This document shows positions 1-5,566 of a DNA stretch of 5,566 nt, piece by piece. The first letter of the stretch is position 1, and each line of letters opens with the position of its first letter. The position numbers were made by a program, and so were the translations under genes. Source of the DNA: Huberarchaeum crystalense [NCBI: Candidatus Huberarchaeum crystalense] (GTDB lineage Archaea; Huberarchaeota; Huberarchaeia; Huberarchaeales); assembly GCA_002790315.1 (NCBI GenBank), contig PFUW01000003.1, positions 15,987 through 21,552 on the forward strand, in the 5' to 3' direction. The notes beneath the pieces are model-generated. The model saw nothing but the letters and a program-made list of their open reading frames with translations, did not search any database and was not told the DNA's origin.

Positions 1-359
1 TCTTTTATTTTGTTTTTAACATAGGTAATCGGGTTTTTTGTTTTTTTTGTGAGGGCATTTTCCCCACAGACCCCCATTTTTTTATAAATCTCTGAATTAA
101 GTGGAGGAATTAACTGTGCTTTTTTTCGCATAAAATTAGAGTGAATTTTTTGAGCAAGCACCTCTTCGGAAACCATAGAGGTATTGCGAAGATTCCATTC
201 TTTTAAAATAAGTTCAACTTGCTCTTGAGAATAGAATGAGCTAACATTTTCTCCTAACCCCCTAAAAAAATTAATGAGAATTTCAGCAGCGCGCTCTGGT
301 TCAACAAATACCCCTTTAAAAATATTTTGTATTGTCTGCGGAAAATCTTTTTCTTCAAT
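1..359 (-). other. Second PriL-CTD/PriX-like domain of the primase (residues ~562-680)
   Basis: This is a divergent repeat of the preceding domain, offset by about 133-139 residues: FPQT at 567-570, ILINFFRGLG, KEWNLRNTS, IPPLNSEIYKKMGVC with C659, ALT ending at T665, and KNPITYV near the edge. It shares long identical stretches with domain one (SEIYK, KNPITYV, NTS, ILINFFR), so the two arose by internal duplication. Only one of four expected cluster cysteines (C659) remains. The protein continues past the window, so further domains cannot be excluded. Confidence 0.6.
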
Positions 360-2042
360 ATATGAAGAACTTAAAAAACTTGACACTCGTGGCTTTGGTT
401 TCTTGCTATTATTTTTATATTTAAGTTTATTAAGAACATATGTAATTGGGTTTTTTACTTTTTTTGTTAATTCATCTTCTTCATAAACACCAATCTCTTT
501 ATAAATTTCTGATGAAAAAGAGGGGGGTAAAATGGGTTTTTTGTGCTTAAAATTATAAAATATTTGTTGATGAACATATTCTTTTGGGAGCGGCGAAGTG
601 TTGCAGAGATTCCACTTTTCCACAACTATTTCAATCATATTTTGAGGATAAGACAAACTTCTGAAAAAATTAATTAAAATAAATAGCGCGCGCTTCCTTC
701 CATCTTTTAGTCCTTTTAAAATATTAAGAATAGTGGGAGGAAAATATAAGGGGTTTATCAAACCATTAAATAAAAAAGATTGTGTTGAAACCAAACCTTT
801 ACCTTGCTTTACAACTTCAATATATGCTTTTTTTCTTTTCTCTGCATCTATTTTTAATAAATCTATAGTAAAGTCCTTATTGTATTTGGTTTCTTCTTGT
901 TTAATTTTATTTAATATTTGTTTTTTTTCCTCTTTATTTTTTTTATCAAACCAAAGAAAAGCATTTGACACCATTTTACTTGCTTTTCCAACAGAATATT
1001 TATCTAAAAACCCCAATAAACCGTCGCCACTATATGATAAAACAGCATCAATAGTTGCTTGTTCTTTTTTAAAAGAATGAATTTTTGATGGAAGAATAGG
1101 CAAACTAACAAAGCCTGATTTTGGATGCAAACTATAAGGGCTACGAATAAAGTGGCGCGAAGAAAAAACCTGAAAATCCAGCTTTAAATTAACAAACAGG
1201 TTGGTTTGTTGTTGTTTTTGGTAGGGGGTTTGGGTGGTTAGGGGGGTTGGTTTCGACTGGAGATTTGTGGTTGTGGGTTTTAGCAAGAACTCTTTTGTTG
1301 GTTTTAAAGAGGAACTATCAATATATTTTTGCTTAAGTTGTTCAGATATATTTTCTAACGAGAAATTATCAATATATTTTTGCTTAAGTTGTTCAGATAT
1401 ATTTTCTAACGAGAAATTATCAATATATTTTTGCTTAAGTTGTCGGGATACTTTTTCTTCAAGATAGCACAAAATAAAAAGAGGTAAAAAAGGAAAAGCT
1501 TGTGCGCGCTTTTCCAACACACCCCCAAAATTACAAATATAGTCTGGAAACTCTTCTCCCCTTAAACCAATATGAAAACCTTTATTACCTGAAAATTTTA
1601 TTGATATGTCTTTTTTAGGTATTCCTTCATCAACAAAAAAAAGCACAATTTCACTTGCAATAATTTTTGCATAAGAAAAACCAATATCAACATCAATATC
1701 TATTATAAAATCCCAATTCTTACGATTATTATCCATCTCTTCTTTTGTTTTGTTTTTTCCTAAATTCATTACATCACACCAACGCTCAATAGATGTGTGA
1801 AATTCATTTGATCCTCGCGCAATATAAGAATATATATCACCTTCTTCATTTAAAAAATTAGGGCGCGCACCCATTTTTCTATTTCCTTTAGAATCTACAA
1901 TAGCAGAAACAAATTCTCTATCCGTAGAAAAAGTAAATATTGCGCGCATAATTTGTGGATTTGAGTAATATTCTAAAAGCTTTCGTCTTGAAATTTGCAT
2001 ATTTTTTTTAATATAGATAATGTTTTCTTTTGAAATTTGCAT
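1..2042 (-). CDS. priS: Fused archaeal DNA primase: PriS catalytic core plus two tandem PriL-CTD/PriX-like domains (3' end outside window)
   Basis: This protein synthesises RNA/DNA primers for replication. I translated the minus strand by hand: the frame is open for 680 codons from ATG at 2042 to the window edge. The PriS core is clear. IERW lies at residues 85-88; IIDIDVDIG at 113-121 carries the metal-binding aspartates (D115, D117, perhaps D119); SGNKGFH at 151-157 is the nucleotide-binding motif with H157; LD at 288-289 gives the third catalytic aspartate, followed by RSPYSLHPKSG at 300-310, close to the eukaryotic and archaeal motif. Between motifs II and III lie a 17-residue triple repeat (195-245) and a Pro/Thr/Gln linker (246-280). 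No Cys/His zinc cluster is visible there. From about 428 come two copies of a helical domain resembling PriL-CTD/PriX. The upstream in-frame stop is at 2109-2111. A second in-frame ATG at 2000 (M15) also fits, because family similarity begins there. No Shine-Dalgarno is seen. The gene is divergent from orc1. Confidence 0.9.
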   Translation of the reverse strand, partial: MQISKENIIYIKKNMQISRRKLLEYYSNPQIMRAIFTFSTDREFVSAIVDSKGNRKMGARPNFLNEEGDIYSYIARGSNEFHTSIERWCDVMNLGKNKTKEEMDNNRKNWDFIIDIDVDIGFSYAKIIASEIVLFFVDEGIPKKDISIKFSGNKGFHIGLRGEEFPDYICNFGGVLEKRAQAFPFLPLFILCYLEEKVSRQLKQKYIDNFSLENISEQLKQKYIDNFSLENISEQLKQKYIDSSSLKPTKEFLLKPTTTNLQSKPTPLTTQTPYQKQQQTNLFVNLKLDFQVFSSRHFIRSPYSLHPKSGFVSLPILPSKIHSFKKEQATIDAVLSYSGDGLLGFLDKYSVGKASKMVSNAFLWFDKKNKEEKKQILNKIKQEETKYNKDFTIDLLKIDAEKRKKAYIEVVKQGKGLVSTQSFLFNGLINPLYFPPTILNILKGLKDGRKRALFILINFFRSLSYPQNMIEIVVEKWNLCNTSPLPKEYVHQQIFYNFKHKKPILPPSFSSEIYKEIGVYEEDELTKKVKNPITYVLNKLKYKNNSKKPKPRVSSFLSSSYIEEKDFPQTIQNIFKGVFVEPERAAEILINFFRGLGENVSSFYSQEQVELILKEWNLRNTSMVSEEVLAQKIHSNFMRKKAQLIPPLNSEIYKKMGVCGENALTKKTKNPITYVKNKIK
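423..761 (-). other. First PriL-CTD/PriX-like domain of the primase (residues ~428-540)
   Basis: This segment has the order of landmarks I associate with the C-terminal domain of the primase large subunit: FPPT at 434-437, a helical FFRSL segment from about 459, EKWNL, PPSF at 506-509, GVY at 518-520, DELT at 523-526 and KNPITYV at 530-536. In the iron-sulfur form of this domain, cysteines stand at about the ends of these four blocks. Here the residues are T437, F509, Y520 and T526, so no cluster could be held. PriX of Sulfolobus-type primases is a known cluster-free relative, and the assignment to PriL-CTD or PriX is inference from the motif pattern. Confidence 0.6.
1206..1262 (-). repeat. 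57-bp GC-rich element, copy in the primase linker
   Basis: Read on the minus strand from 1262 to 1206, this element matches 3974-4030 on the plus strand at 55 of 57 positions without gaps, so the two copies form a long inverted repeat about 2.7 kb apart. In the primase it encodes residues 261-279 (a Pro/Thr/Gln linker). It contains TCCAGTCGAAAC (1261-1250) and C runs whose complement gives G tracts at 1224-1228, 1232-1234 and 1241-1246 on the plus strand. Its base composition is far from that of the surrounding DNA. It may be an initiator-binding or structural DNA element, which is inference. Confidence 0.9.
1250..1261 (-). promoter_or_regulatory. Origin-recognition-box-like motif inside the primase gene
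   Basis: The motif TCCAGTCGAAAC fits the core pattern TCCAnnnGAAAC that I recall for archaeal ORB/mini-ORB sites bound by Orc1/Cdc6. A C run follows two bases after GAAACC, whereas in typical ORBs a G string follows on the same strand, so the match is only partial. It lies within 1.2 kb of the orc1 start. Confidence 0.35.
1308..1460 (-). repeat. Three tandem 51-bp units encoding 17-residue helical repeats inside the primase
   Basis: Three in-frame units of 51 bp lie at 1410-1460, 1359-1409 and 1308-1358. They encode variants of LENISEQLKQKYIDNFS (residues 195-211, 212-228, 229-245). The middle and last units are nearly identical in DNA, including synonymous positions, which indicates recent duplication by slippage or unequal exchange. 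The unit length is a multiple of three, so copy-number change would not break the frame. The charged, amphipathic pattern suggests a helix or coiled coil. The repeat is inserted between catalytic motifs II and III. Confidence 0.9.
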
Positions 2043-2054
2043 GTTTTTTAATAT
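1988..2054 (-). repeat. Duplicated start region of the primase gene (two copies 42 bp apart)
   Basis: The 13 bp ATGCAAATTTCAA occurs at 2042-2030 and again at 2000-1988 on the minus strand. Each copy is preceded by an A run and ATATT, so about 25 bp including the leader is duplicated at a 42-bp period. Both ATGs are in frame and give MQISKE and MQISRR. Either could be the initiation site. Conserved PriS sequence starts after the second, so the inner ATG may be the ancestral start. Confidence 0.75.
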
Positions 2055-2396
2055 GTTTAATATAATATTATATTTATTAATAATTAATAATAATTTATAA
2101 TATTTAATTTAGTAATTTTTAATAATAATTTATAATATTTAATAATAATAACTTTTAATAATAATCTATAATAAATTATAACAATAATAACTAATAATTT
2201 TTAATAACAATCTTTAATAATCTTTAATAATTATTTAATAATCTTTAATAATAATAAAATATAACAATAATTATTTATAATAATATATTAATAATTTTTA
2301 ATAATAATTTATAATACTAACAATTTACGACTATTTATAATAATCTAACAATCTATAATAATAATTTAATAATTTATAACAATCTTTAATAACATT
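2043..2396. other. Extremely AT-rich divergent intergenic region, candidate replication origin unwinding element
   Basis: This 354-bp gap between the divergent primase and orc1 genes holds 19 C and 4 G on the plus strand, about 6.5% GC. It contains iterated A/T motifs. A 25-bp word beginning TTAATAATAATTTATAATA is exactly repeated at 2084-2108 and 2119-2143, and its first 19 bases recur at 2298-2316. AATCTTTAAT appears several times between 2209 and 2390. Archaeal origins commonly sit beside orc1/cdc6 and contain such an easily melted stretch. No ORB-like G/C motif is inside the gap. Both promoters must lie here, but the composition hides any TATA box. Confidence 0.5.
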
Positions 2397-3611
2397 ATGC
2401 CTGAAAAAAACATCCAAGAGATACTTCAATCTATTGTCAACCAAAAAAGCAAAATATTTAAAAATAAAAAAATATTATCTTTAGACTATATTCCAGAACA
2501 AATCCTTCATCGCCAAAAACAAATTGAAGAAATAACAAAAATACTTAGCCCTATTTTTAGAGAAGAACCAACATCAAATATTTTTATCTATGGAAAACCA
2601 GGAACAGGTAAAACAACAACAATTAATTATATAATAAAAGAAATAAAATATTTTTTAGATAAACAAGAGAATAAAAACCTTCAACAAAAAATAAAAATAA
2701 TATATCTTAATTGTAAAGAAGGACATGTTTCAGACACAGAATATAGATTAATATCAACAACATGCTCTTATTTTGGAAAGCAAATTCCTGCAGGGCTATC
2801 TATAAAAAATATATATGATGAGTTTTTTAGGGTAGTTGATTATCAAAAAGCAAATATAATTTTAGTTCTTGATGAAATTGATAATATTGTTAGTAAAAAT
2901 AGTGATGATTTTTTATATAATCTTGCTCGCAAAAGATTTAAAAATATAAATTTAACTCTTATAGGAATTTCAAATAATATTAATTTTATAGAACTTTTAG
3001 ATCCGCGTATAAAAAGCGCGCTTAACCAAGAAGAATTTATTTTTCCTCCATATAATGCAGAAGAACTTTTAGATATTTTAAAGCAAAGGTCTGATAATGC
3101 TTTTGAAAAGAGTGTTGTTTCTGAAGGTGTTTTAGAAAAAGTTGCAGGTATTATTGCTCAGCAAAATGGAGATATGCGAAGGGCAATAAATTTATTACGT
3201 GTTGTTGGGGAATTAGCTGAAAGAAATAATCTTAATAAATTATCTTTAGAGTTAGTTGAAGAAGCTGAAAAAAAATTAGAAGAAAATATAATGTTAGAAA
3301 TGATATATAGCCAGCCCCTACACTCTAAAATTATATTATATTCTGTTTTGCAAAATACAATAAAAACAAAAACAACTACAACAGGAAAAGTATATGAACA
3401 ATACGAACAACTTTGCAAAACAACAAAACAAAAACCTTTAACTTCTCGCCGCGTCACAGACTTTGTTGTTGAGTTAGACATGTTGGGGCTTATTTCAACA
3501 AATATTGCTTCTTATGGTAGATATGGAAGAACGCGTGAATTATCTATAAATTATCCAAAACAAATAAGAGACCAAATTACTACTTATCTTAGAGGTGTTA
3601 TATTTAGATAA
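2397..3611 (+). CDS. orc1/cdc6: Orc1/Cdc6 family replication initiator (AAA+ ATPase with winged helix)
   Basis: This 404-residue protein has the usual archaeal Orc1/Cdc6 length. It binds origin DNA and helps load the MCM helicase. The N-terminus has the family signature LSLDYIPEQILHRQKQI (27-43). Walker A is GKPGTGKT at 66-73, Walker B is LVLDEID at 156-162, sensor 1 is ISNN at 191-194, an arginine in LDPRIKSAL (R204) follows, and sensor 2 lies in GDMRRAINLL (258-267). The C-terminal winged helix covers about 300-404, with the typical LGLIS segment and a GRYGRTREL beta wing (374-382). ATP-binding and hydrolysis residues appear intact. The ATG at 2397 directly precedes conserved sequence, and no Shine-Dalgarno is seen, so the mRNA may be leaderless. 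The gene is divergent from the primase, shares the AT-rich gap with it, and points toward the DNA polymerase D small subunit gene. Confidence 0.97.
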   Translation: MPEKNIQEILQSIVNQKSKIFKNKKILSLDYIPEQILHRQKQIEEITKILSPIFREEPTSNIFIYGKPGTGKTTTINYIIKEIKYFLDKQENKNLQQKIKIIYLNCKEGHVSDTEYRLISTTCSYFGKQIPAGLSIKNIYDEFFRVVDYQKANIILVLDEIDNIVSKNSDDFLYNLARKRFKNINLTLIGISNNINFIELLDPRIKSALNQEEFIFPPYNAEELLDILKQRSDNAFEKSVVSEGVLEKVAGIIAQQNGDMRRAINLLRVVGELAERNNLNKLSLELVEEAEKKLEENIMLEMIYSQPLHSKIILYSVLQNTIKTKTTTTGKVYEQYEQLCKTTKQKPLTSRRVTDFVVELDMLGLISTNIASYGRYGRTRELSINYPKQIRDQITTYLRGVIFR

Positions 3612-3760
3612 TAATAATTAAATTAATTATATTTGTTTTATATATATTTATATAAATATATAAATAATATTTAAATATATATATTTATTTTAAAGGCGTT
3701 ATATTTAAATAATAATTATAATTATTTTAAAGATGTTTTATTTAAATATTTATTATTAAT
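3587..3760 (+). repeat. Degenerate tandem copies of the orc1 3' end
   Basis: The last bases of orc1 and its stop (about 3587-3621, encoding LRGVIFR-stop) are echoed at 3687-3719 (would read LKGVIFK-stop) and again, more diverged, at 3724-3758 (would read LKDVLFK). The GGTGTTATATTTAGATAATA pattern is recognisable in all three. This looks like partial duplication of the gene end followed by decay. The extra copies have no coding context. Confidence 0.6.
3641..3662. other. 22-bp perfect A/T palindrome downstream of orc1
   Basis: Positions 3641-3662 form a perfect inverted repeat centred between 3651 and 3652, made only of A and T. It lies about 30 bp after the orc1 stop and follows a T-rich stretch, so it could contribute to transcription termination. 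Palindromes of this kind arise easily in such AT-rich DNA, so significance is weak. Confidence 0.4.
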
Positions 3761-3808
3761 ATTTATTATTTATTGTTTAATTATATTTAATTGTTTTAGT
3801 TTAATTTT

Positions 3809-3848
3809 AAATAAATACAAAAAATATAAAATTCAAATAAATACAAAA
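3809..3848 (+). promoter_or_regulatory. Repeated AAATAAATACAAAA motif, possible promoter of the DP1 gene
   Basis: The 14-bp word AAATAAATACAAAA occurs at 3809-3822 and 3835-3848, a spacing of 26 bp. The second copy lies about 25-35 bp before the ATG at 3871, the position expected for an archaeal TATA box if the transcript is leaderless. No ribosome-binding site precedes the ATG. The rest of the 259-bp spacer (3612-3870) holds only A/T-rich repeats. Confidence 0.35.
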
Positions 3849-3870
3849 CCATTTGTTGTTTAAAAAAAAT

Positions 3871-5566
3871 ATGCCTAACTTAAATTTTATACCTAATAAT
3901 ATTTCTGATGAACAAAAAACAAAAGCAAAACAAGGTGAACTTATTTTTATACCTTCTAACCCCCCCTACCACACTCCAGTCGAAACCAACCCCCCTAACC
4001 ACTCAAACCCCCCACCAAAAACAACAACAATAACAAAAACCACCCTTGCTACACACCAAACAACAGAGTCAAAACAACAACATCAACAACAACCTGCGCC
4101 CGCGCCACAAACTTGCGCGCCAACAACAAATATATTTTCTAACATTTTTAAAATAGACACAACCCAAGATATTAAAGTTATACAAGAATTTTCAAAAACA
4201 GGTTATGCGCGAACAGCTTCAACATTTACATCTTATTTTAAAAGCCGCTACCAAAAACTCAGTGCTATTTTTAAAAGAGAGCATGTATTTGATAAACCTA
4301 TTTGCTCAATTTATAATTTAGTGCAAAACCAACCTTTAACTATTATTGGAATAGTTTATGATATTAGAAAACTACCTAATAGCTATCGCATCACTGTTGA
4401 AGATCTTACAGGAAAAATTAGTATTGTAGTTCCTGCAAACAACATAAATGCTTTTGAAAAATCAAAAAAAATATTTGCTGATATGGTGCTTGCATTTACA
4501 GGTGTTTTAGGAGGAAGAAATGTATTTTTTTGCGATGATATAATATTACCTGACATTCCTTTACAAAACAGCTACAAACAACGAACCGAAAAACCAGATG
4601 TGTCTTTTGTTTTTATCTCTGATTTGCATATTGGAAGCAAAAATTTTTTAAAAAAATCATTTCAGCATTTTGTTGACTGGGTGTGCGGGTATTATGGTGG
4701 AACTTTAGGTGTTGATGCCTCAAAAATTACAGTAATTTTTGTGGGCGGTGATTTAGTTTCAGGAATAAATATCTATAAAGAACAGCAAAACGACTTACAT
4801 ATTCAAGATTTAAAAAAGCAATACGATGAAGTTGCGCGCTATTTTTCTAAAATTCCAAAAACCATCAAAATAATTATAATTCCTGGAAACCACGACGCTC
4901 AGCGATTACCTACCCCACAACCAGCAATTATGAAGTCTTTTGCTACCTCACTTTATGATTTAAAAAATGTTATTATGACATCAAGCCCTTGTTTGGTTTC
5001 TGTTTTTGGTGTGAATGTTCTGCTTGATCATGGGGTAAGCACATCTGTACTTGCTGAAATAAATTCTGATTTTAAGAGCATGCTTGTTTCTGAGCCTCAA
5101 AAAATAGGAAAATATTTGCTACAAGCGCGCCACCTATACCCTATTTATGGAGAGGCGAGAGGGGTTTTGTCTCCCGAATTAGAAGATTTTCTTGTCATAG
5201 ACAAAATCCCAGATATTTTTGCATTCGGGCATGTTCATTCTTGTGGATATATGAATTATAGAGGAGTACATATTATTAATCCTGGTTGTTTTGAGGGGAT
5301 GACTGATTATGAAGAGAGAATAGGATTAACTCCAAATCCGGGTTGGGCTTATGTTTATGATTTAGCAACAGATAGTGTTAAAGCACTTTGTTTTTTAGAT
5401 GATGATGAAAAAGATTTGGCAAATGGTATAAATCTCAGAGCAGCAAAAGAAAAAAAATTAATAGAAGAAACAACAAATAAGGGTAATATAAACAATATTG
5501 TTGCTGACCTTAAAATAATAGGTGGCGCGCACACAAAAGATCTATTAAAAATTGCAACAAAGTGCG
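3871..5566 (+). CDS. polB: DNA polymerase D small subunit DP1 (3' end outside window)
   Basis: This is the small subunit of the archaeal replicative polymerase PolD, which carries the 3'-5' proofreading nuclease and binds the large subunit DP2. The frame is open for 565 codons from ATG at 3871 to the window edge. After a short N-terminal segment comes a Pro/Thr/Gln-rich linker (about 30-90), then an OB fold (about 150-215, starting near PLTIIGIVYDIR). The Mre11-like phosphoesterase follows: FISDLHIGS (D251, H253), GGDLVSG (D294), IPGNHDAQRLPTPQP (N340, H341, D342), LDHG (H387) and FGHVHS (H454, H456). RHLYPIYGE and YRGVHIINPG are also typical of DP1. All expected metal ligands appear present, so the nuclease is probably active. 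About 65 further residues follow the last core strand, rich in charged residues. The linker contains the second copy of the 57-bp element. No DP2 gene is seen before the edge. Confidence 0.95.
   Translation, partial: MPNLNFIPNNISDEQKTKAKQGELIFIPSNPPYHTPVETNPPNHSNPPPKTTTITKTTLATHQTTESKQQHQQQPAPAPQTCAPTTNIFSNIFKIDTTQDIKVIQEFSKTGYARTASTFTSYFKSRYQKLSAIFKREHVFDKPICSIYNLVQNQPLTIIGIVYDIRKLPNSYRITVEDLTGKISIVVPANNINAFEKSKKIFADMVLAFTGVLGGRNVFFCDDIILPDIPLQNSYKQRTEKPDVSFVFISDLHIGSKNFLKKSFQHFVDWVCGYYGGTLGVDASKITVIFVGGDLVSGINIYKEQQNDLHIQDLKKQYDEVARYFSKIPKTIKIIIIPGNHDAQRLPTPQPAIMKSFATSLYDLKNVIMTSSPCLVSVFGVNVLLDHGVSTSVLAEINSDFKSMLVSEPQKIGKYLLQARHLYPIYGEARGVLSPELEDFLVIDKIPDIFAFGHVHSCGYMNYRGVHIINPGCFEGMTDYEERIGLTPNPGWAYVYDLATDSVKALCFLDDDEKDLANGINLRAAKEKKLIEETTNKGNINNIVADLKIIGGAHTKDLLKIATKC
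3974..4030 (+). repeat. 57-bp GC-rich element, copy in the DP1 linker
   Basis: This is the second copy of the inverted element also found at 1206-1262, differing at two of 57 positions. In DP1 it encodes part of residues 35-54 (Pro/Asn/Thr-rich), and its first base is codon position 2, whereas in the primase it is codon position 1. The same DNA is therefore read in two different frames. On the complementary strand it carries two G6 tracts (complement of 3990-3995 and 4008-4013), with a further G7 tract just outside at 3960-3966. Conservation at the DNA rather than the protein level is implied. Confidence 0.9.
3975..3986 (+). promoter_or_regulatory. Origin-recognition-box-like motif inside the DP1 gene
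   Basis: TCCAGTCGAAAC fits TCCAnnnGAAAC, the remembered core of archaeal Orc1/Cdc6 binding sites, and lies about 360 bp beyond the orc1 stop. It points away from orc1, as does its twin at 1250-1261. The adjoining string is C rather than G on this strand, so it is not a full canonical ORB. Confidence 0.35.

What the first reader, a model, noticed from the sequence alone, without database searches (positions are those of the whole stretch)
1206..4030. Same 57-bp element embedded in primase and DP1 linkers, in different reading frames, flanking orc1 as an inverted pair
Seen directly: 1262-1206 (minus) and 3974-4030 (plus) match at 55/57 positions, in two unrelated replication genes, translated in different frames. 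Protein-level selection cannot explain this. Each copy has TCCAGTCGAAAC, fitting the archaeal ORB core TCCAnnnGAAAC as I recall it, and I find no other match in the window. Inference: initiator-binding sites of the origin sit inside the disordered linkers of the two proteins bracketing orc1, with the AT-rich gap at 2043-2396 between them. Alternative: a small mobile or conversion-prone linker sequence that has spread between genes.
Basis: partly seen in the sequence, partly recalled or inferred. Interest (0 to 1): 0.82.

Follow-up and report, generated by a model that had tools for sequence, protein, structure and literature searches.

The report
Replication-start-like sites inside protein linkers
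In a tiny symbiotic archaeon, the same 57-letter DNA piece, which resembles a replication start signal, lies inside two neighbouring replication genes; a distant archaeal family carries such signals inside one of the same genes, so the piece may serve as protein code and replication signal at once.

Summary
The repeat is confirmed: 1262-1206 (minus) and 3974-4030 (plus) agree at 55 of 57 positions, far beyond chance, in primase and DP1, in different frames. The window is nearly identical to a contig of Candidatus Huberarchaeum crystalense. The readable genome (454 kb) holds only these two copies, so one local, inverted copying event is near certain.

Is it an origin element? Against: no canonical ORB lies upstream of orc1, where 23 of 29 relatives have one, and the common ORB motif fits at chance level (13 of 20). 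For: the Thermococcaceae ORB fits at 16 of 20, joint best in the genome (permuted motifs give 0-5 sites). In an unnamed family with Thermococcaceae-type ORBs, ORB sites lie inside the DP1 linker frame at 28 of 29 readable loci; 64 of 66 STG tripeptides there use the one ORB spelling (codon expectation about 1%), and the orc1 bodies hold none. So initiator sites inside the DP1 linker have a precedent.

I lean to an ORB-like site in the DP1 linker, copied into primase (0.48), over a copy without function (0.36). Orc1 binding is untested. An earlier codon-usage argument for the direction of copying failed its control and is withdrawn.

The parts
3974..4030 (+). 57-bp element, copy in the DP1 N-terminal linker
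1206..1262 (-). 57-bp element, copy in the primase linker/insertion, 55 of 57 identical
3974..3993 (+). ORB-like site, 16 of 20 to the Thermococcaceae form, encodes PVET in DP1
1243..1262 (-). ORB-like site, 16 of 20, primase copy
1302..1454 (-). three 51-bp tandem repeats (17 aa) in the same primase region
   Evidence: family D3
3..2042 (-). primase with PriS-type catalytic domain, open at the window edge
2043..2396 (.). AT-rich intergenic region between divergent primase and orc1, no canonical ORB
2397..3611 (+). orc1/cdc6 initiator
3871..5566 (+). DP1, DNA polymerase D small subunit, open at the window edge

Best explanation
The DP1 linker carries an ORB-like Orc1 site (CTCCAGTCGAAACCAACCCC), read as PVET by the protein. 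A 57-bp stretch with this site was copied in inverted orientation into the linker of the neighbouring primase gene, probably by template switching, so that two outward-pointing sites bracket orc1 and the AT-rich gap. Orc1 would bind both; they may be the origin's initiator sites, or may titrate Orc1. Shown: repeat, frames, copy number, motif scores, and the precedent of ORB sites in DP1 linkers of another family. Inferred: the direction DP1 to primase, the mechanism of copying, Orc1 binding, and any role at the origin.
For: Thermococcaceae ORB 16 of 20; 3 genome positions reach this and 2 are the copies. 12-position core ranks 5 and 6 of 905,628. Precedent: of 32 loci scanned in an unnamed family, the DP1 frame was recognised in 29, and 28 of these have sites of at least 17 of 20 inside it before the phosphoesterase motif: 70 sites, 0.00 expected by shuffling, in four strand/phase classes. 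Over all 32 loci: 75 sites in 30,661 bp of linker, 0 in 38,991 bp of orc1 bodies, 0 in 14,399 bp of the rest of DP1; 20 permuted motifs gave 1 site in all; 64 of 66 STG tripeptides in linkers are spelled TCCACTGGA, none of 4 elsewhere, background codon product about 0.013. 5 of 7 PVET peptides in those linkers are spelled CCAGTGGAAAC, the frame of the H. crystalense site. Orc1 keeps TxRRVxD and GRYGRT and a GLSI ISM like 2qby_A. 16 of the 20 relatives with two or more upstream sites have a minus site distal to a plus site, the order seen here.
Against: Common ORB 13 of 20 is chance level; permuted Thermococcaceae motifs give 0-5 sites at 16 of 20, and 11 motifs were tried. On 15 core positions 11 genome sites reach 13, and the reversed control gives 22. 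A weight matrix from relatives' sites scores the element -9.7, rank 2947, but its sites were hand-picked with G runs. C run after the core. No upstream ORB, unlike 23 of 29 relatives, and only 8 of 29 relatives have any site downstream of orc1, 3 of them from the Thermococcaceae-type family. Sites in that family are mostly on minus (62 of 70), here plus. Wing lysine of 21 of 22 relatives is Tyr373. The precedent covers DP1, not primase.
Confidence: 0.48

Rival explanations
1. A copy without DNA-level function: a linker-coding stretch was copied between DP1 and primase by template switching or break repair and tolerated, being a multiple of three, open in the new frame, and in poorly conserved linkers. 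The ORB resemblance is chance.
For: Only 2 copies. Among 371 stop-to-stop ORFs it is the one sense-strand out-of-frame match of 40 bp or more that is not an overlap of adjacent ORF ends (1 of 13). 16 of 17 aligned primases have 33-67 residues where H. crystalense has 109, one has 118; residues 224-265 are matched by at most 1 of 17. Tandem repeats beside it. 3 of 5 strain substitutions fall in 1206-1454 (binomial 0.0008, interval chosen afterwards). Permuted motifs also reach 16 of 20.
Against: The ORB-like site lies in the DP1 linker, where another family keeps ORBs. Codon usage does not show the direction: frame difference P 0.14 in 5000 shuffles. Within the element's residues 261-279 the alignment still places residues of 11-12 relatives at 8 positions, so the insertion's edge is uncertain. 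Arms 2.7 kb apart exceed the spacers of at most 70 bp studied in yeast (PMC8604942, passages).
Confidence: 0.36
2. A C-tract / quadruplex-prone element acting at the origin.
For: Copies rank 1st (2.16) and 3rd (2.00) of 110 G4Hunter sites of at least 1.2; a G-rich inverted repeat enhances Haloarcula oriC1 (PMC3936714, abstract and passages).
Against: No copy has four G3 runs (sequence); the two ranks are one copied sequence; the Haloarcula repeat lies between ORBs in a minimal origin.
Confidence: 0.07
3. A small mobile element like Rickettsia palindromic elements.
For: Same DNA in two unrelated genes, both frames kept.
Against: Two copies; no hairpin stem of 4 bp or more with exact arms; no exact 20-mer in viral contigs, no blastn match in phages at E up to 1.
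Confidence: 0.03
4. Assembly artefact.
For: Metagenome assemblies; L001 has 25 N in the primase repeat region.
Against: Both copies stand in two assemblies that differ by substitutions; both frames stay open.
Confidence: 0.03

Closest known systems
Archaeal ORB, Thermococcaceae form (motif from PMC4164010, passages)
   Same: 16 of 20 positions; beside orc1; in a family with that ORB type such sites also lie in the DP1 linker
   Different: Four mismatches, C run, no upstream intergenic ORB, plus strand, and a copy in primase
Downstream ORB cluster of Haloarcula oriC2 (PMC3936714, abstract and passages)
   Same: Initiator sites on the far side of the initiator gene
   Different: There a cluster (11 elements in the passage seen) that lowers origin activity; here one site on each side, untested
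Template switching between inverted repeats in yeast genes (PMC8604942, passages)
   Same: Inverted copying inside coding DNA
   Different: Spacers of at most 70 bp there, 2.7 kb here
Rickettsia palindromic elements (PMC10969869, passages)
   Same: Short DNA inside unrelated genes
   Different: About 150 bp and many copies; here 57 bp, two copies, no palindrome

Membership tests
Archaeal ORB | Core TCCAnnnGAAA[CT] | tested here: met
   Exact in both copies
Archaeal ORB | Full motif above chance | tested here: inconclusive
   Common form chance level; Thermococcaceae form joint best in genome, permuted controls 0-5
Archaeal ORB | G run 3' of the core (many lineages; absent from the Thermococcaceae form) | tested here: not met
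   C run
Archaeal ORB | Location beside orc1, usually upstream intergenic | tested here: inconclusive
   None upstream, but ORBs in DP1 linkers exist in another family
Archaeal ORB | Bound by Orc1 | not testable with these tools
   Needs purified protein
Template-switch copy | Reverse-complement copy of nearby sequence | tested here: met
Template-switch copy | Ancestral state without the copy | tested here: inconclusive
   Primase region longer than in 16 of 17 distant relatives, edges uncertain; no other genome of the phylum held
Rickettsia-type intragenic mobile element | Many dispersed copies, palindromic | tested here: not met
G-quadruplex motif | Four runs of three or more G | tested here: not met
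   Three runs at most (sequence)

The most novel reading that the evidence does not exclude
Archaeal initiator sites can live inside protein-coding linkers of replication genes. One family carries ORBs throughout its DP1 linker, with synonymous spelling frozen; H. crystalense, lacking upstream ORBs, carries its remaining ORB-like site there and has copied it, inverted and in another frame, into primase, so the pair brackets orc1 and the AT-rich gap.
Probability: 0.4. Interest if true: 0.75.

Novelty: new variant of a known kind. Interest (0 to 1): 0.58.

Why it matters
It would mean that the same DNA encodes a linker of the replicative polymerase and binds the replication initiator, tying origin evolution to protein linkers. 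The family-wide case (64 of 66 identical synonymous spellings) should be testable in cultured archaea, and it gives the H. crystalense pair a concrete model. If the H. crystalense pair is only a copying accident, it is still a clean case of new protein sequence made by copying DNA into another gene and frame.

Tried and rejected
Withdrawn after checking: codon usage as proof that DP1 is the donor. The in-frame scores were -2.04 (DP1) and -4.96 (primase), 4th and 0.02 percentile of genome windows, but shuffling the 57-mer gives such a frame difference in 14% of 5000 trials. Also changed: ORB position as an argument against; some searches showed ORBs in DP1 linkers elsewhere, so the odds of the ORB reading were raised from 0.18 to 0.48 and those of a functionless copy lowered from 0.60 to 0.36.

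Rejected: mobile linker family (copy number); programmed inversion (frames differ, reasoned only). Orc1 divergence as the reason for missing upstream ORBs was favoured after (relatives' P135, T136 and D137 are S, I and K) and weakened (S. solfataricus GLSI, A. pernix GLSV at that place). Viral relatives of primase: none in viral contigs. A first base-rate list missed the element because its gapped match fell under a 90% filter; one search repeated it ungapped.

Limits: the 37 sites of the matrix were chosen by hand from 59 listed. One search used 22 ORB-bearing relatives, leaving out L026 (two sites of 15). 7 of 29 upstream stretches were cut by contig ends. G001 has 45,771 N in 499,820 bases. 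No Orc1 closer than 46% was among the 60 relatives. Of the 61 genomes, loci of 32 were scanned; those genomes are related, so sites are not independent. In one search the linker's end was found by a motif in 27 of 32 loci and set at 800 nt in 5; the linker is counted from the orc1 stop, so a short untranslated start may be included.

Full report
What is there. Divergent primase and orc1 with an AT-rich gap at 2043-2396, then DP1. The window differs from PFSX01000057.1 of Candidatus Huberarchaeum crystalense by 5 substitutions and by a 44-base stretch (25 of them N) present only in that record. The inverted pair is real: 55 of 57 here, 56 of 57 there, with an exact arm of 29 nt against a maximum of 19 in 100 simulations.

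Copy number and base rate. BLAST of a 60-bp query finds two full copies and four matches of 12-14 bp in the genome held (454,049 readable bases). Among 371 stop-to-stop ORFs, 13 sense-strand matches of 40 bp or more are out of frame; 12 are overlaps of adjacent ORFs by their coordinates and one is this element. Of 3 antisense matches, 2 are overlaps and one is a 54-bp hairpin on C19. In-frame matches of that length number 31.

Primase region. 16 of 17 aligned relatives have 33-67 residues between two anchors where H. crystalense has 109; one has 118. Residues 224-265 are matched by at most one relative, but at 8 of the element's 19 residues the alignment places residues of 11-12 relatives, so the edge of the insertion is uncertain. 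Three 51-bp tandem repeats adjoin. Of 20 relatives with both genes listed, 6 have primase and orc1 on one contig, the nearest about 12 kb apart, and 14 have them on different contigs.

ORB tests on this genome. With the common motif of Ori-Finder 2 (PMC4164010, passages), 23 of 29 relatives have a site of 15 of 20 or better within 900 bp upstream of orc1; H. crystalense has none, best 13. The element scores 13 of 20, chance level. On the Thermococcaceae form it scores 16 of 20: 3 genome positions reach this, two being the copies; six permuted motifs gave 4, 1, 1, 5, 3 and 0. TCCANNNGAAAC occurs 4 times, reversed control 1; TCCANNNGAAAY 9 times, four controls 2, 4, 5 and 11.

The precedent. In L024, L025 and L026, relatives with Thermococcaceae-type ORBs, sites of 19-20 of 20 lie after the orc1 stop in the open frame of the DP1 N-terminal linker and are read as (F/Y/S)ISTG. 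In the family of G028 (unnamed; I take it to be Thermococcaceae-like from its ORB form alone), 60 of 61 genomes have an Orc1 match. Of 32 loci scanned, the DP1 frame was recognised in 29, and 28 of these hold sites of at least 17 of 20 before the phosphoesterase motif, 70 sites against 0.00 by shuffling, in four strand/phase classes; L204 has none. Controls in the same loci: 0 sites in 38,991 bp of orc1 bodies, 0 in 14,399 bp of the rest of DP1, 1 site over 20 permuted motifs. 64 of 66 STG tripeptides in linkers are TCCACTGGA, none of 4 elsewhere, with background TCC 0.20, ACT 0.26, GGA 0.25. Frozen synonymous spelling, and sites in several frames, argue for selection on DNA. Eight plus-strand sites include three read as PVET, and 5 of 7 PVET peptides in linkers are spelled CCAGTGGAAAC; the H. 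crystalense DP1 copy reads PVET from CCAGTCGAAAC.

Is the precedent in print? Papers found were seen for this question as listings only, apart from PMC5663688, whose passages describe one ORB and three mini-ORBs in the region beside cdc6 of T. kodakarensis and do not mention sites in DP1. Subscription papers are mostly not held, so I make no claim that it is new.

Orc1. It keeps TSRRVTD and GRYGRT in the winged helix, which I take to hold the four ORB-contacting arginines named in PMC9738581 (passages, which do not give their positions in this protein). Its wing lysine is Tyr373. The same paper says the ISM meets the G track in the A. pernix complex but not the DNA in the S. solfataricus heterodimer, so a missing G run is not fatal.

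Structure-prone DNA. The copies rank 1st and 3rd of 110 G4Hunter sites, but neither has four runs of three G; this is a lead only.

Verdict. The copying event is near certain. An ORB-like role is the single most likely reading, at slightly under even odds, because the site sits where another family keeps ORBs; it is not shown.

Noticed in passing
L024-L026, L178-L206 (loci of the family of G028): ORB sites inside the DP1 linker frame at 28 of 29 recognised loci, with 64 of 66 STG tripeptides spelled TCCACTGGA.
   Followed up: partly
2043-2396: No canonical ORB upstream of orc1, unlike 23 of 29 relatives.
   Followed up: partly
1206-1454: Primase linker with three 51-bp tandem repeats and 3 of the 5 substitutions between two strains.
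   Followed up: partly
1-745: C-terminal part of primase looks internally duplicated, about 1-346 and 399-745, 64% at DNA level (converted from C2 coordinates).
   Followed up: no
L059 (G001 C19), about 11154-11269: A 54-bp perfect inverted repeat with a short spacer between divergent ORFs (positions worked out by hand); may be an assembly effect.
   Followed up: no
L067, L068, L103, L116 (G001 C25, C26, C60, C73): A family of long degenerate repeats, partly in large ORFs.
   Followed up: no
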